In this document: in pieces, positions 1-6,140 of the stretch
Layout: the number at the start of each line of letters is the position of its first letter
Numbering within the stretch: the stretch's first letter is position 1
Source of the DNA: Sphingobacteriales bacterium 46-32
GTDB taxonomy: Bacteria; Bacteroidota; Bacteroidia; Chitinophagales; Chitinophagaceae
Length of the DNA: 64,000 bases
Assembly: GCA_001898485.1 (NCBI GenBank)
Contig: MKTY01000007.1
Coordinates: 62,001 to 126,000, forward strand
Direction of reading: 5' to 3'
Position numbers and translations under genes: made by a program
Notes under the pieces: generated by a model
What the model saw: only the letters and a program-made list of their open reading frames with translations
Told to the model about the DNA's origin: nothing
The model's database searches: none

Positions 1-1110
1 CAAGTATTTATGCAGGAGGAAAAAATGGACATCAGTAACGAGCAAAGCCTGGCTGCGTTTGAAACGATAATGCGGCAAATTGCCGGCAGGTTGAAAGCGA
101 GACAGAAAGCTGCTACTGAAGCCGTCAATCAACTGGAGCAAAAGATTATAAAAGACATGGCGGCTTTTGTACACCCTGAGGAGAAAATAATACGAGAGTT
201 TCCAAGCTGGCAGGGCGATGTGATCAATATCAGCGCTGATCTTAAAAGCATAGAGGATATTGAAGAACTCTACAACACTATACAAACGCAGCGCCTGGTA
301 GAGCATAAAAAAAGGTTCCGCGAATACATGGATAAAAGCATGCTGGACGCCCTTACCAGTTATCGCACCTGGCTGGACAATGAGCTGGATAAGATCAAGG
401 ATATGATTGACGAGCTGAACGTTCCTTTAAAGAAAATCACGTTCAACCGAAATCCCGACACCTACCTGCAACTGGAATACCGCCCGTTACGCGGTGAAAA
501 CGAAATCAATATCTTCCGCAGGCAACTCAGCGCAGCCATACCCAATGCGTTGGACTTTGCTACGCAGCAGGATGACAACTACAGGGAACAGGTATTTGAG
601 AAAATAAAAAATCTCGTTACCGAACTGCAAAAAGAAGAAGCCTGGCGCAGGAAGGTAAGCGACGTACGCAACTGGCTCAGCTTTGGCGCAAGAGAATACT
701 CTATGGCGGAAAACAGGGCGGAGCAATACCACGACAACACGGCCAGCTATTCGGGTGGACAAAAGGCACAGTTCACCTATGCCATCCTGGGAGCAGCCAT
801 TGCACACCAATTTGGTATCTTTCAGCAGGGACGGCAGCACAAAAGCCTCCGCTTTATAACAGTAGACGAGGCCTTCAGTAAGCTAGATCCTGAGAAAAGT
901 CGTTTCTTAATGGAGTTTTGTGAACAGCTCAACCTGCAAATACTGGTAGTAACTCCATTGGACAAAATAAATATTGCAGAACCCTATATTCATGCCGTGC
1001 ATTTTGTGGAGATTAAAAACAAGAAAAACTCTGTGCTGCATAACCTTACGATGGAACAATACTATAAGCAAAAAGAAAACTTTAAACAAGTAACGGAAGA
1101 AACAGAATGA
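1..1110 (+). CDS. jetC: Wadjet subunit JetC, SMC-like ATPase, C-terminal part (5' end outside window)
   Basis: This is the C-terminal part of the SMC-family ATPase of a Wadjet anti-plasmid system. The reading frame is open back to base 1, so the gene is cut by the window edge and the first ATG (position 10) is not the true start. The first ~250 visible residues are charged and helical, fitting the returning arm of an SMC coiled coil. After it come an ABC signature (YSGGQKAQ, near residue 250) and a Walker B/D-loop (ITVDEAFSKLDPEKS, near residue 290), both well preserved. In Wadjet, JetABC forms an SMC motor that extrudes DNA loops and recruits the JetD nuclease to cut small circular DNA. Its stop overlaps the start of the next gene by 4 bp (ATGA), as expected for jetC-jetD translational coupling. 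An SbcC-like ATPase is the alternative, but the downstream gene argues for JetC. Confidence 0.9.
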   Translation, partial: QVFMQEEKMDISNEQSLAAFETIMRQIAGRLKARQKAATEAVNQLEQKIIKDMAAFVHPEEKIIREFPSWQGDVINISADLKSIEDIEELYNTIQTQRLVEHKKRFREYMDKSMLDALTSYRTWLDNELDKIKDMIDELNVPLKKITFNRNPDTYLQLEYRPLRGENEINIFRRQLSAAIPNALDFATQQDDNYREQVFEKIKNLVTELQKEEAWRRKVSDVRNWLSFGAREYSMAENRAEQYHDNTASYSGGQKAQFTYAILGAAIAHQFGIFQQGRQHKSLRFITVDEAFSKLDPEKSRFLMEFCEQLNLQILVVTPLDKINIAEPYIHAVHFVEIKNKKNSVLHNLTMEQYYKQKENFKQVTEETE

Positions 1111-2246
1111 TAACGCCACAGGAACTTCTGGATAAATCGGACAAACACTTCTTTAAAATAGCAGGTGCTGTATTAAAGGATGAAAATCCTTTTCCCCTGG
1201 TGATCCCATCCGACAAAAAGATACAAGACACTGGTTTTAATAACCTGCAAAGTGCCCTCATACCACTTTATAATCACTCAAAAGACAAAAAAGGTAAGGG
1301 ATACACCATAGCATGGAAAACAAAAAACATACAAGGTTCTCAACAGAAAATTCCCGCTAAAATATATTATGAAACCCTGGAAGACTACCTCTTTTTTACG
1401 AAGCGTGAAAAAGACTTTTCGAAAATAAAAGGAGTGTACGAACTAATTGCGACTTCCTTTCCACTCAATGCCGCCTGGGCAAAAGAAGAACCTGCTTTTC
1501 TTTTAACCTACGCAGCCATCATGCCCGACCTGCTAAAAGTGGTCCGTTATTTCTTTGACCATACGCCTCCCCATCAGCTTTACTTACGTGAGTTGCCGAT
1601 ACAGGTACACACAAAGTTTATTGAGGATAATACGAAGCCCTTAAAGAAGATGCTGGATATAATGTTACCTGCCGACAAGATCAACTTTGAAGAAAAAGAC
1701 TTCTTCGGTCGGTATCAGGTAAAACGGCCCAATATCTATACGCAGGTCAGGGTACTGGATGATGCACTAAAATCTACGTTGGGCTACCATGAACTGGCGC
1801 TTACCATTGATGATGCCGCCTTGCTCACCTGGCAGCCAGAAAAGGTATTTATCATTGAGAATGGAGCTTGTTTTCGGTCCTTTCCTAAAATAAAAAGCAG
1901 CGTGGCCATTTTTGGGGAAGGCTTTAAAAGCCGCGTCAACAAATATATTCCCTGGCTGGCCGATTGTGAGCTCTATTGCTGGTTTGATATGGATGCCGCT
2001 GGCTTTGAGATGCTGAACATGATCCGCCAACATTACGGAAATGCCAAAAGTTTTTTAATGGATGAAATGACCTACAACGAATTTTCTGGGTTTTCGGTAC
2101 ACTCCGTATACCGGAAGATCGAATTGCCTCTTCTACATCCCGATGAACAAAAAATGTATCAATTTTTACAAAAAGAAAACCGAAGACTGGAGCAGGAAAG
2201 GGTATCAAATATGTATATACAGAAGTGCTTGGATTTATTTTCTTGA
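1107..2246 (+). CDS. jetD: Wadjet nuclease subunit JetD (DUF3322/DUF2220, toprim)
   Basis: The 379-residue protein has the size and two-part layout of JetD, the topoisomerase VI/Spo11-related nuclease of Wadjet: an N-terminal DUF3322-type region followed by a DUF2220 toprim domain. The toprim signature residues are visible: the glutamate in VFIIENGACF near residue 250 and the acidic motif WFDMDAAGFE near residue 290, which would bind the catalytic metal. The gene overlaps jetC by 4 bp and is the last gene of the operon. jetA and jetB should lie to the left of the window. About 230 bp of non-coding sequence follow before a convergent gene. The family assignment is firm. Activity is inferred from intact motifs. 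Confidence 0.9.
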   Translation: MITPQELLDKSDKHFFKIAGAVLKDENPFPLVIPSDKKIQDTGFNNLQSALIPLYNHSKDKKGKGYTIAWKTKNIQGSQQKIPAKIYYETLEDYLFFTKREKDFSKIKGVYELIATSFPLNAAWAKEEPAFLLTYAAIMPDLLKVVRYFFDHTPPHQLYLRELPIQVHTKFIEDNTKPLKKMLDIMLPADKINFEEKDFFGRYQVKRPNIYTQVRVLDDALKSTLGYHELALTIDDAALLTWQPEKVFIIENGACFRSFPKIKSSVAIFGEGFKSRVNKYIPWLADCELYCWFDMDAAGFEMLNMIRQHYGNAKSFLMDEMTYNEFSGFSVHSVYRKIELPLLHPDEQKMYQFLQKENRRLEQERVSNMYIQKCLDLFS

Positions 2247-3745: not shown

Positions 3746-4975
3746 TTAATTTTGGGAAGAGGGGCATTCTACATTGACCAGCTGGTCGCCTTCCACGATG
3801 GTAAAGGGATCCTTAGTGTCCTTATCTTTCAACTGGATAAAAGTGTATTTATTTTCAGCCCCCAGTACATCCATATCTTCCCGATGCTGGAAATAGCCCA
3901 CCATGGTACTTCCATCCCGGAAGGCGAGCTTAGTCGGCGCTGACGTTGGCGCATATACGCCTGGATATTGCGGGCTCATTGCCGCAGCAATCATGTCATG
4001 GGTCATCCCCATACGTCTTACCTTTTCCTGGTAGTTACGCTTATATGTTGCTTTTATTTCTTCGTTTAAAAAAGAACGTTTAATGAGGTCCATCACTTTT
4101 TCCTGCCTGGTTAACAGTTGCGTGAGTATTCGCATACTCCTGTTGGGAATTAAACCTATCCGCTCAGCAAAGTTCCTGAACGCCGGTTGCCCAAAAAAAC
4201 CATAGGAGCGATAAAAAGCACCATCCATATCTCCTTTGTACAGCTCAAGTGCCAGATCAGTTTCCGTTGGTGTATGAAGCACCGTGCTCATCAGGTCATA
4301 GGCAGGCGTCAACGTATAATCACCCATATCTGACTGTATTAGCGAGAAATTCTTAAGATGAGCATCCCCATTAGAAAAAAGATAATTGAATAGTACCAGC
4401 TTAAAAAAACTCTCCAGTGCCGGCGGAAAGGCGGCGACATATTTCCGGATCAGCTGCCCTATTTCTTCGTATGAACCTTCATACTTAAAGTTTTCGCCGC
4501 GCGTCTGGCGGCTGCGGCCACTGATCTGCGCCATATCCTCCTGCAGGTACTTACTGCCATCCGGCTTTACATCGAAACGGCGCGTTATGTAGGCTGGCGT
4601 TCCGTCCTTAAAATAAATAAGCGCATTTGCCGCCGTTTTGATATCAAATACCTGTGAGGCAATCTGCATGGTCAAATGCTCATTCTCCGGCGCCTGTTCA
4701 GGTTCAACGATCTGGTTTGTTGGCGGAATCGGTTTAAGTATATACTGGCCGCCTGTCTCCGCCAGTTGAAGTTCCCTGCCCTCCAGACGCAGTGAATATT
4801 TAAGCTGCACCCCGGAAATGGATAAGCGCTTTGTCTTCGCCTGATATGCCGGCAGTGTATCCGCTTTGGGTGAATCAAAGGAAAGTACAGGTGAAACCCT
4901 CGCCCCATCAAAAAGAATTTTGCGGCAGCTCAGGCAGTAGCCTTCAACATCTGGTCTATAACATCCCGGACACAT
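3746..4975 (-). CDS. hipT: HipT-like HipA-family serine/threonine kinase toxin with zinc-ribbon N-terminus
   Basis: This 409-residue kinase belongs to the HipA family but lacks the HipA N-terminal subdomain, which the preceding gene encodes separately. In order it shows: a CxxC...CxxC zinc ribbon (C2, C5, C14, C17); the Gly-rich loop motif SISGVQ (residues 52-57), matching the Ser-Ile-Ser autophosphorylation motif known from E. coli HipT; the ATP-binding lysine in YILKP (K81); the catalytic loop NGDAHLKN (202-209, D204); and the metal-binding YDLMS (D227). Residues ~335-409 form an extra beta-rich tail absent from canonical HipA. Family knowledge predicts phosphorylation of an aminoacyl-tRNA synthetase (TrpS for HipT, GltX for HipA). 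The target here is unknown. It starts 3 bp after hipS and is last in the hipB-hipS-hipT operon. All catalytic residues look intact. Confidence 0.85.
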   Translation of the reverse strand: MCPGCYRPDVEGYCLSCRKILFDGARVSPVLSFDSPKADTLPAYQAKTKRLSISGVQLKYSLRLEGRELQLAETGGQYILKPIPPTNQIVEPEQAPENEHLTMQIASQVFDIKTAANALIYFKDGTPAYITRRFDVKPDGSKYLQEDMAQISGRSRQTRGENFKYEGSYEEIGQLIRKYVAAFPPALESFFKLVLFNYLFSNGDAHLKNFSLIQSDMGDYTLTPAYDLMSTVLHTPTETDLALELYKGDMDGAFYRSYGFFGQPAFRNFAERIGLIPNRSMRILTQLLTRQEKVMDLIKRSFLNEEIKATYKRNYQEKVRRMGMTHDMIAAAMSPQYPGVYAPTSAPTKLAFRDGSTMVGYFQHREDMDVLGAENKYTFIQLKDKDTKDPFTIVEGDQLVNVECPSSQN

Positions 4976-4978
4976 GGT

Positions 4979-5305
4979 TTATGCTGGTATTTCTTTTACA
5001 GTAATAGCGCCTATCGTATCACTCCCTGCTGTTTTTAGCAGGCGGCTAAAATCATCTTCCTCGTCTATTTTCAGCAGGCGGCATTGTATGTCTTTATTGA
5101 TCCCTTCAGCAAGCAAACCGGCAAAAAAGGGAAACAATACCGTACTATGATGCGATACCTCACTGCGGGGAAGCGTAAGGCTTATGGAAGGCATGCCCGC
5201 ATCTGCCAGGTAATCTTTTTCATAGGTAAACTGGTAGTCATCCGGCCCCCTCTTTTCCAGGATACCGGCAAGAACACCATTATTATATACAAATGCCCTT
5301 GCCAT
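4979..5305 (-). CDS. hipS: HipS-like antitoxin (HipA N-terminal subdomain as a separate protein)
   Basis: The 108-residue product corresponds to the HipA N-terminal domain 1: it has the typical ISLTLP strand (residues 41-46) and the FPFFAGLLAEG segment (58-68). In HipBST systems this small protein, not HipB, neutralises the kinase. Its ATG overlaps the hipB stop codon by one base (TAATG) and its stop lies 3 bp before hipT, so the three genes should be translated together. The protein contains no tryptophan at all, whereas E. coli HipS is reported to block HipT with a Trp side chain. If inhibition works the same way here, a Phe of the FPFF segment would have to take that place (inference). Confidence 0.85.
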   Translation of the reverse strand: MARAFVYNNGVLAGILEKRGPDDYQFTYEKDYLADAGMPSISLTLPRSEVSHHSTVLFPFFAGLLAEGINKDIQCRLLKIDEEDDFSRLLKTAGSDTIGAITVKEIPA

Positions 5306-5514
5306 TAATTAATCTTTTTAACCTGGATCACCAGCTCCATCCCTAATACAGTAGCCAGCTTGTCCAGCGTTTCTACAGATGGATTCCCGGTACCAGTTTC
5401 TACCAGGTGGATCGTTTTTATGGCAATACCGCTCATTTCAGCCAGGTCTTCCTGTCTTAAACTCAAAAATTCGCGTCTAAACTTAATGGCATTACCAATT
5501 TCTACAGCATTCAT
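5305..5514 (-). CDS. hipB: HipB-like helix-turn-helix regulator
   Basis: A 69-residue single-domain Cro/CI-type HTH protein (RQEDLAEMSGIAIKTIHLVETG forms the HTH core around residues 20-41), followed by a short beta strand (ELVIQVKKI) that in HipB proteins forms the dimer sheet. It is the first gene of the hip operon and should repress it by binding the repeated TATTnCnGATTTT-type sites just upstream (5521-5649). Its stop codon is shared with the hipS start. Length and position fit HipB of HipBST/HipBA modules. Confidence 0.85.
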   Translation of the reverse strand: MNAVEIGNAIKFRREFLSLRQEDLAEMSGIAIKTIHLVETGTGNPSVETLDKLATVLGMELVIQVKKIN

Positions 5515-5520
5515 CGGTAT

Positions 5521-5649
5521 TATATTACTGATTTTCTATAAAAATAGGATAATCTAGGTATAAATTAGCTCAAATATGTAATATATTGCCGATTTTGATC
5601 AATTATTTGATTTTTACCCTCTTAAAATCGATAAATCGGTAATATAATT
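5521..5649 (-). promoter_or_regulatory. Candidate HipB operator cluster upstream of hipB
   Basis: Three related 14-15 bp sites lie upstream of hipB: TATATTACTGATTTT at 5521-5535, ATATATTGCCGATTTT at 5581-5596, and, in the opposite direction, AAATCGGTAATATAATT at 5633-5649. The last two form a ~13-bp imperfect inverted repeat separated by ~36 bp, and the first sits a few bases from the hipB start codon. Multiple widely spaced inverted half-sites are typical for HipB operators. That HipB binds them is inference; the repeats themselves are visible. Confidence 0.5.
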
Positions 5650-6140
5650 CCGAAAACGCTACAAAAAGCAGAAAAGAAATAGCTCCGGATCAGCGGAACT
5701 GAAATGCTGTTGAACTTATCAGTAAAGACAGGCAGGTGGAATCAGACCCATTATCACAAATGCTACAAACCAGCAGCAACCAGCCCTGACAATGTAGAGA
5801 ATATCACCCCGGAAAAGTATACATTCAGATTAAAATGTGTTTTGAAACAAAATCAGGCTATTGATCAAGCGAGACAGTGCTCGTGTGTCTGCGGGCTCAG
5901 ATTTTCACTTTACAGCACGAACGATTTCAAATCACTCAGTCTTTTTCATAAGTTAATAATAAAGACATTAAACCGCCAGGCGTCCAACTGATCACGGGGC
6001 AAGATCCCAACTGAAAGCCCCCCTTATAGCACTGTTTAAAAGCAGACTATTTCGGGGGACGTAAATTATCAAAAGAAGATAAGCACAAAGCAGATGGTCG
6101 TTTCTCAAGCATGCAGGCCATACAGCATGCTTCTCTCCTC
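5650..6140. other. Intergenic region, no supported gene
   Basis: The stretch holds one open frame (5704-5991, plus strand, 95 codons). Its product has five scattered cysteines but no recognisable domain, no visible ribosome-binding site and no neighbour in operon distance, so it is not called as a gene. A hairpin (AAGCATGC at 6107-6114 with GCATGCTT at 6125-6132) lies just past the stop of the following minus-strand hydrolase gene and may mark its 3' end, though it lacks a U-tract. Confidence 0.4.

What the first reader, a model, noticed from the sequence alone, without database searches (positions are those of the whole stretch)
3746..5514. Three-gene HipBST-like toxin-antitoxin operon with unusual HipT architecture
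The kinase is split as in HipBST: hipB, a 108-residue HipS and a kinase with a SISGVQ Gly-rich loop. The kinase differs from known HipT in carrying an N-terminal CxxC-CxxC zinc ribbon and an extra ~75-residue beta-rich C-terminal tail. HipS has no Trp, so the Trp-based block described for E. coli HipS cannot be used as such. Target and inhibition mechanism may be new.
Basis: partly seen in the sequence, partly recalled or inferred. Interest (0 to 1): 0.65.

Follow-up and report, generated by a model that had tools for sequence, protein, structure and literature searches.

The report
HipBST toxin-antitoxin with Sm-fold tail
This is a three-gene bacterial growth-arrest switch of a known kind (HipBST), but its toxin carries an extra small domain predicted to fold like RNA-binding Sm/Hfq proteins, and the same domain is also fused to the antitoxin-repressor of a sister system and made as a free small protein next to RNA-handling genes.

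Summary
The operon is real: hipB (5514-5305), hipS (5305-4979) and hipT (4975-3746), all on the minus strand. It is a HipBST module of the Legionella subtype. Its closest solved relatives are Legionella HipT and HipS. HipS has Glu-Gly-Ile where E. coli HipS has Trp, and three palindromic operators sit exactly 61 bp apart upstream of hipB. All catalytic residues are present. [quoted passage not shown] A Trp-less HipS that still neutralises is published for Legionella. The C-terminal tail is the real novelty. It is confined to one Chitinophagaceae lineage (11 loci plus the window), is under purifying selection, and is predicted to be an Sm/Hfq-like barrel. The same domain, absent from Pfam and NCBIfam, is also fused to HipB in a second HipBST family. 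It also exists as a free basic protein of about 85 residues beside RRM, cold-shock and RhlE genes, in a family whose sampled genomes lack Hfq. The tail itself is acidic, so I favour an interaction module of the toxin complex over RNA binding. The locus lies in a defence island (Wadjet, Kiwa, LmuB-like).

The parts
5305..5514 (-). hipB: 69-aa HTH protein, presumed autorepressor
   Evidence: HTH_3 E=2.9e-10; couple_hipB TIGR03070 E=7e-12, below its cut-off; upstream of hipS/hipT in 55 of 56 loci
4979..5305 (-). hipS: 108-aa antitoxin-like protein (HipA N-subdomain 1), E67-G68-I69 at the E. coli Trp65 site
   Evidence: Couple_hipA E=2.3e-18; TIGR03071 E=4e-24; HipS(Lp) 7vkb_B E=4e-17
3746..4975 (-). 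hipT: 409-aa HipA-like Ser/Thr kinase with N-terminal CxxC-CxxC mini-domain, kinase core and C-terminal Sm-like tail
   Evidence: HipA_C E=1.7e-40; HipT(Lp) 8ezr_B E=9e-32; AF2 pLDDT 90.5, pTM 0.91; Foldseek to 7wcf/7ab3
4916..4975 (-). CxxC-CxxC mini-domain (C2, C5, C14, C17; residues 1-20)
   Evidence: each Cys in 49-50 of 52 homologues; profile aligns it to Legionella HipT residues 3 onward and E. coli HipT residues 15 onward
4733..4822 (-). Gly-rich loop SISGVQLK (S52-K59) and ATP lysine K81
   Evidence: nearly invariant in 52 homologues; correspond by alignment to Legionella K61 and K85
4295..4372 (-). catalytic N-G-D204-A-H206-L-K-N209 and Mg-binding A-Y-D227
   Evidence: 51-52 of 52 homologues for the key residues; match Legionella H199, N202, D219
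3749..4009 (-). C-terminal extension, residues 323-409 (helix 326-333, then strands 348-403)
   Evidence: alignment A1; AF2
3758..3958 (-). Sm/Hfq-like barrel domain within the tail (about residues 340-406)
   Evidence: Foldseek hits almost all Sm/Hfq/DUF903-type folds, E 0.015-0.08; homologous to stand-alone and HipB-fused domains
5514..5531 (.). operator O1, palindrome touching the hipB start codon
   Evidence: the DNA search, 1 mismatch to TCGGTAWTATAWTWCCGA; no match in the 64 kb window outside this array; conserved in relatives
5575..5592 (.). operator O2, 61 bp from O1
5636..5653 (.). operator O3, 61 bp from O2

Best explanation
This is an intact HipBST toxin-antitoxin module of the Legionella-like subtype. 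HipT is an active Ser/Thr kinase that arrests growth, presumably by phosphorylating an essential protein, possibly an aminoacyl-tRNA synthetase (inferred; target unknown). HipS binds over the Gly-rich loop and keeps the kinase in its P-loop-ejected, ATP-blocked state without Trp, as in Legionella (inferred from homology). HipB, with or without HipS-HipT, sits on three palindromic operators spaced 61 bp apart and shuts the promoter (sites shown, binding inferred). In one Chitinophagaceae lineage HipT gained, by in-frame fusion, a complete small protein: one helix plus a predicted Sm/Hfq-like barrel. The same domain was fused to HipB in a second HipBST family, so it most likely acts at the level of the HipB-HipS-HipT complex, as a docking or sensing module that binds a partner and tunes assembly, release or substrate choice, not as part of catalysis. 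The acidic charge of the tail makes a protein partner more likely than RNA.
For: Domain hits and order. Nearest solved structures are Legionella and E. coli HipT/HipS. Catalytic and ATP-site residues are invariant or nearly so in 52 homologues. HipS has EGI/EGV at the Trp site in 54 of 56, like Legionella EGI, where neutralisation without Trp is published. The operator array has fixed spacing: in a held-out test 28 loci gave 58 sites and 28 of 35 gaps of 60-61 bp, against 0.1 sites per shuffle; Legionella HipBST also has three evenly spaced operators. The tail is under purifying selection (L006/L007 dN/dS about 0.15, close to the core's 0.12). Tail homology to stand-alone proteins: hhalign P=97.4, E=1e-11; to HipB C-domains: P=96, E=4e-9. 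Sm-like fold from Foldseek, with weak independent LSM signals. HipT tails have median pI 4.8 against 9.5 for the free proteins.
Against: No experiment shows toxicity, neutralisation or operator binding. The Sm-like assignment rests on a model (tail alone pLDDT 80) and Foldseek E-values no better than 0.015; no Sm or Hfq profile reaches its cut-off. The tail is dispensable for the family: most relatives lack it and one close relative (L008) ends exactly at the junction. The role of the tail as a complex-level module is inferred only from its placement on both HipT and HipB.
Confidence: 0.58

Rival explanations
1. The tail is an RNA-binding Sm/Hfq-like domain that brings the kinase to an RNA-bound target (for example a synthetase-tRNA complex) or lets an RNA control the toxin.
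For: Foldseek hits are dominated by Hfq, SmAP and LSm. The free homologues are basic (pI 9.5) and sit beside RRM Rbp regulators, CSD proteins and RhlE helicase. No Hfq match in the own genome, and none above cut-off in 25 relatives.
Against: HipT tails are acidic (median pI 4.8, net charge -4) and lack most of the K/R residues conserved in the free proteins. No direct RNA-binding evidence.
Confidence: 0.2
2. The tail is a tolerated, nearly neutral fusion without its own role; the system works like any tail-less HipBST.
For: Most relatives have no tail; L008 appears to have lost it. The tail evolves faster than the core in most pairs.
Against: Purifying selection on the tail, seven invariant columns in 11 sequences, persistence across several genera, and an apparently separate fusion of the same domain to HipB.
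Confidence: 0.15
3. The module is mainly an abortive-infection defence system in which the tail senses a phage product and releases HipT.
For: The locus follows Wadjet type I (JetABCD), Kiwa (KwaAB) and an LmuB-like gene. Its nearest relative L002 sits between CBASS genes and PD-T7-1.
Against: Defence islands collect toxin-antitoxin modules of all kinds; only a few loci were checked, and with short flanks. The operon's own genes match the defence library only weakly (PDC-M03).
Confidence: 0.15
4. HipT is an inactive remnant or a regulator rather than a toxin.
For: None beyond the lack of experiments.
Against: All catalytic residues kept across 52 homologues; operon and operators intact.
Confidence: 0.05

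Closest known systems
Legionella pneumophila HipBST (Lpg2368-2370; PDB 7vkb, 7vkc, 7wcf, 8ezr)
   Same: Three-gene order; HipT nearest in PDB (E=9e-32; profile E=2e-46); HipS without Trp (I65/M66 there, I69 here); three evenly spaced operators; N-terminal mini-domain
   Different: No CxxC-CxxC, no C-terminal tail, P-loop MSVQ rather than LSIS, different operator spacing (53-bp gaps there)
E. coli O127:H6 HipBST (PDB 7ab3-7ab5)
   Same: Gene order, split kinase, SIS loop with two serines, N-terminal mini-domain (residues 1-41), HipS Glu before the Trp site
   Different: HipS Trp65 essential there and absent here; no ribbon, no tail; the Legionella-type operator motifs are reported absent there
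Second Bacteroidota HipBST family (HipT starting CLYCYxPL; e.g. L095-L098, L106-L116)
   Same: Three-gene order, Cys-rich HipT N-terminus, shares the tail domain
   Different: The domain is on HipB (140-147 aa), HipT has no tail, HipS has EGW
HipL/HipN (HipA-like kinase or antitoxin with C-terminal HIRAN domain; PMC8262856)
   Same: Kinase or HipS-like protein with an extra C-terminal nucleic-acid-type domain
   Different: The tail here is not HIRAN (no Pfam hit) but Sm-like by fold, and HipS is a separate gene
Sm/LSm/Hfq fold proteins
   Same: Predicted helix plus five-strand barrel; Foldseek neighbours
   Different: No Sm/Hfq profile passes its cut-off; HipT tail is acidic; ring formation unknown

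Membership tests
HipBST toxin-antitoxin | hipB-hipS-hipT order in one operon | tested here: met
   conserved in 55 of 56 loci
HipBST toxin-antitoxin | HipT lacks N-subdomain 1, which is encoded by hipS | tested here: met
   Couple_hipA only in HipS, HipA_C only in HipT; PDB matches
HipBST toxin-antitoxin | four kinase motifs and a Gly-rich-loop serine | tested here: met
   S52, S54, K59, K81, D204, H206, N209, D227 conserved
HipBST toxin-antitoxin | HipT N-terminal mini-domain | tested here: met
   profile alignment covers it in Legionella HipT and most of it in E. coli HipT
HipBST toxin-antitoxin | HipT length 291-346 aa (descriptive range in PMC8262856, not a defining criterion) | tested here: not met
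   409 aa because of the tail; the core of about 322 aa is within the range
HipBST, E. [quoted passage not shown]
   EGI at the site; not required in the Legionella subtype
HipBST, Legionella subtype | three evenly spaced inverted-repeat operators upstream of hipB | tested here: met
   5514, 5575, 5636; 60-61 bp spacing in relatives; Legionella comparison
HipBST toxin-antitoxin | HipT toxic, HipS neutralises, HipB represses | not testable with these tools
   needs growth and reporter assays
Sm/LSm/Hfq | Sm fold | tested here: inconclusive
   nearly all top Foldseek hits are Sm-like, but best E is 0.015 and tail-only pLDDT 80
Sm/LSm/Hfq | match to Pfam LSM or Hfq above cut-off | tested here: not met
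   no significant hit for the tails; LSM E=0.047 for one HipB C-domain; no LSM hit in the own genome
Sm/LSm/Hfq | ring oligomer and RNA binding | not testable with these tools
   tail acidic, free homologues basic
HIRAN-bearing Hip kinases (HipL) | C-terminal HIRAN domain | tested here: not met
   no HIRAN hit

The most novel reading that the evidence does not exclude
The tail is a mobile Sm/Hfq-like module, used freely as an RNA-binding protein in Hfq-less Chitinophagaceae, that was captured separately by HipT and by HipB in two HipBST families to put toxin release or kinase targeting under control of an RNA or of the cold-shock/RNA-decay machinery. This would be an RNA-linked HipA-type kinase, not described in the papers searched.
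Probability: 0.2. Interest if true: 0.78.

Novelty: new variant of a known kind. Interest (0 to 1): 0.52.

Why it matters
HipA-like kinases are the classic persistence toxins, and how extra domains tune the three-protein HipBST switch is unknown. The same undescribed domain appears on the toxin in one HipBST family, on the repressor in another, and as a free protein in RNA-handling gene clusters. That gives a direct handle on what signals HipBST complexes receive. It also points to a candidate Sm-like small protein family in a bacterial family whose sampled genomes lack recognisable Hfq.

Tried and rejected
Zinc ribbon as a novelty: rejected, common to the homologues. One of the six peptide patterns used to gather them was the ribbon itself (MCPGCYRP), so the fraction is biased upward; tail-derived patterns likewise bias the tail count. 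Trp-less HipS as a new inhibition mode: rejected as new. HIRAN or any Pfam/NCBIfam domain for the tail: none found. PDB sequence search with tail profiles: only weak hits. A tail gene lying separately next to tail-less hipT in related loci (a fusion intermediate): not found. Tail monophyly: not shown and not rejected (AU p=0.137; tail rows plus L008 already fall on one side of a branch with weak support). A HipS-HipT complex could not be modelled with the tools given. The viral fold library was not searched with the tail.

Full report
OBSERVATION. hipB and hipS overlap by one base and three bases separate hipS from hipT. Pfam identifies HTH_3, Couple_hipA and HipA_C. Searches of solved structures place HipT nearest to Legionella HipT (8ezr, E=9e-32), then E. 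coli HipT (7ab3, E=1e-20), and HipS nearest to Legionella HipS (7vkb_B, E=4e-17). A structure model of the whole kinase is confident (pLDDT 90.5, pTM 0.91), and its best fold matches are the same Legionella and E. coli HipT entries.

CONSERVATION. A scan of public genomes gave 56 homologous loci, nearly all Bacteroidota and mostly Chitinophagaceae. hipB, hipS and hipT are found together in 55 of them (one, L044, lacks a recognisable hipS). In 52 full-length kinases the residues corresponding to the ATP and catalytic residues of characterised HipT (K59, K81, D204, H206, N209, D227) and the two loop serines are invariant or nearly so (residue roles from PMC9325769). The kinase is therefore predicted to be active.

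ZINC RIBBON. Each of the four cysteines is in 49-50 of 52 homologues. A profile of the family aligns this segment with residues 3 onward of Legionella HipT and 15 onward of E. coli HipT. [quoted passage not shown] coli structure (PMC10627512). Relatives such as Emticicia and Runella keep the segment with fewer cysteines. So the ribbon is the Cys-rich version of a standard HipT part, not an addition. The sampling used one ribbon peptide among six patterns, so the exact fraction is biased.

HIPS. At the site of E. coli Trp65 this HipS has E67-G68-I69; of 56 HipS of the family 35 have EGV, 19 EGI, one EGE and one EGH, none EGW. In Legionella the same site is I65/M66 and neutralisation does not rely on Trp (PMC10653801); HipS binding there turns the P-loop into a helix that blocks ATP (PMC9325769). 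The Trp-less block is therefore known. A second HipBST family in the same bacteria keeps EGW.

OPERATORS. Upstream of hipB lie three copies of an 18-bp palindrome (TCGGTAWTATAWTWCCGA-like) at 5514, 5575 and 5636, exactly 61 bp apart, with no other match in the 64-kb window at up to three mismatches (6 strand matches, expected 0.21). Most relatives carry two or three such sites at 60-61 bp, the nearest touching the hipB start codon. In a held-out test with a matrix trained on the other half of the loci, 28 loci gave 58 sites, 28 of 35 gaps being 60-61 bp, against a mean of 0.1 site in shuffles and none inside the operon. Legionella HipBST also has three evenly spaced operators, with 53-bp gaps, and its homologues are reported as widespread in the FCB group (PMC10653801). 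Together with the closest structures, this places the module in the Legionella-like HipBST subtype.

TAIL: DISTRIBUTION. The extension (residues 323-409) is in the window and 11 loci, Chitinophagaceae wherever the family is named (one is split by an assembly gap, L011). On the kinase tree it needs two changes, compatible with one gain and a loss in L008, whose kinase stops right at the junction; a single origin is neither shown nor rejected. The tail is under purifying selection: between L006 and L007 dN/dS is about 0.15 in the tail and 0.12 in the core; most other pairs are saturated at synonymous sites.

TAIL: WHAT IT IS. It has no Pfam or NCBIfam match. A profile of it finds matches in 78 of 197 genomes of the family, mostly free proteins of 83-90 aa that start with a helix-like segment (MTNEQIEKFI...) followed by the same strands. 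Some profile matches in HipT begin at the helix, so a whole free protein seems to have been fused in frame. A phylum-wide sample found it only in this family. The profile also finds the C-terminal domain of HipB (140-147 aa) in a second HipBST family whose HipT begins CLYCYxPL. Profile comparisons support the three-way homology: tail to free protein E=1e-11, tail to HipB domain E=4e-9, free protein to HipB domain E=5e-6. In no operon examined do both HipT and HipB carry it.

TAIL: FOLD. The tail alone is modelled as a helix plus five strands (pLDDT 80). Nearly all top PDB fold matches are Sm-type: small lipoproteins of the DUF903 kind, Hfq, archaeal SmAP, LSm and spliceosomal Sm proteins, E 0.015-0.08, probability mostly above 0.93 (that the lipoproteins are DUF903/Sm-like is from my own knowledge). 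Weak independent signals agree: Pfam LSM E=0.047 for one HipB domain and archaeal Lsm E=0.12 and SmD1 E=0.43 for the HipB-domain profile. None passes a curated threshold, so 'Sm-like' is a probable fold assignment, not a proven family membership.

TAIL: FUNCTION. The free proteins are basic (median pI 9.5) and lie next to RRM proteins of the Rbp regulator family, CSD cold-shock proteins, RhlE-type helicases, a FabH-like synthase and a desaturase. Hfq is absent from the own genome and no match above cut-off was found in 25 relatives, with positive controls, in line with reports that Bacteroides lack Hfq, ProQ and CsrA (PMC12119571). The free protein is thus a candidate RNA-binding protein. The HipT tails are acidic (median pI 4.8), which argues against a simple RNA-binding role on the toxin. 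Placement on HipT in one family and on HipB in another suggests a role in the complex: docking, sensing, or tuning of assembly. This step is inference.

SETTING. The operon follows a complete Wadjet type I set (JetA, JetB, JetC, JetD), Kiwa (KwaA, KwaB) and an LmuB-like gene. The nearest relative's operon (L002) sits between CBASS genes and PD-T7-1. A defence role is possible and untested.

VERDICT. The module itself is a new member of a known kind. The Sm-like tail, and its sharing with HipB and with a free RNA-context protein, make it a new variant. No paper found in the searches describes the tail or the HipB domain, though most subscription papers are not covered.

Noticed in passing
L063-L093; own genome G000:C14:142912-143115 (L092 1498-1749 -): A free basic ~85-aa protein family with the same predicted Sm-like domain, unknown to Pfam and NCBIfam, sits beside RRM Rbp regulators, CSD cold-shock proteins and RhlE in Hfq-less Chitinophagaceae: a candidate Hfq-like small RNA-binding protein.
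   Followed up: partly
own genome L094 2729-3708 (G000:C19): A second HipBST family is present but broken: HipB with fused Sm-like domain looks intact, HipS ends early (69 aa) and HipT is reduced to 71 aa. Intact copies exist in other genomes.
   Followed up: partly
L095, L096, L098, L106-L116: HipB proteins of 140-147 aa with a C-terminal Sm-like domain in a HipBST family whose HipS has Trp (EGW); other members of that family have a short HipB without the domain.
   Followed up: partly
window 1-2246 and upstream (L137 420-11111): Defence island: LmuB-like gene, Kiwa KwaAB and Wadjet type I JetABCD directly before the hipBST operon.
   Followed up: partly
L002 63-5818: The nearest hipBST relative lies between CBASS genes (phospholipase, cyclase, E2) and PD-T7-1.
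   Followed up: partly
L044: A Dyadobacter locus has hipB directly before hipT with no recognisable hipS; how the kinase is neutralised there is unclear.
   Followed up: no
upstream of hipB in L002-L057: The operator array has near-fixed 60-61 bp spacing, with two to four sites; a few loci (Dyadobacter) have the distal site at 69-71 bp.
   Followed up: partly
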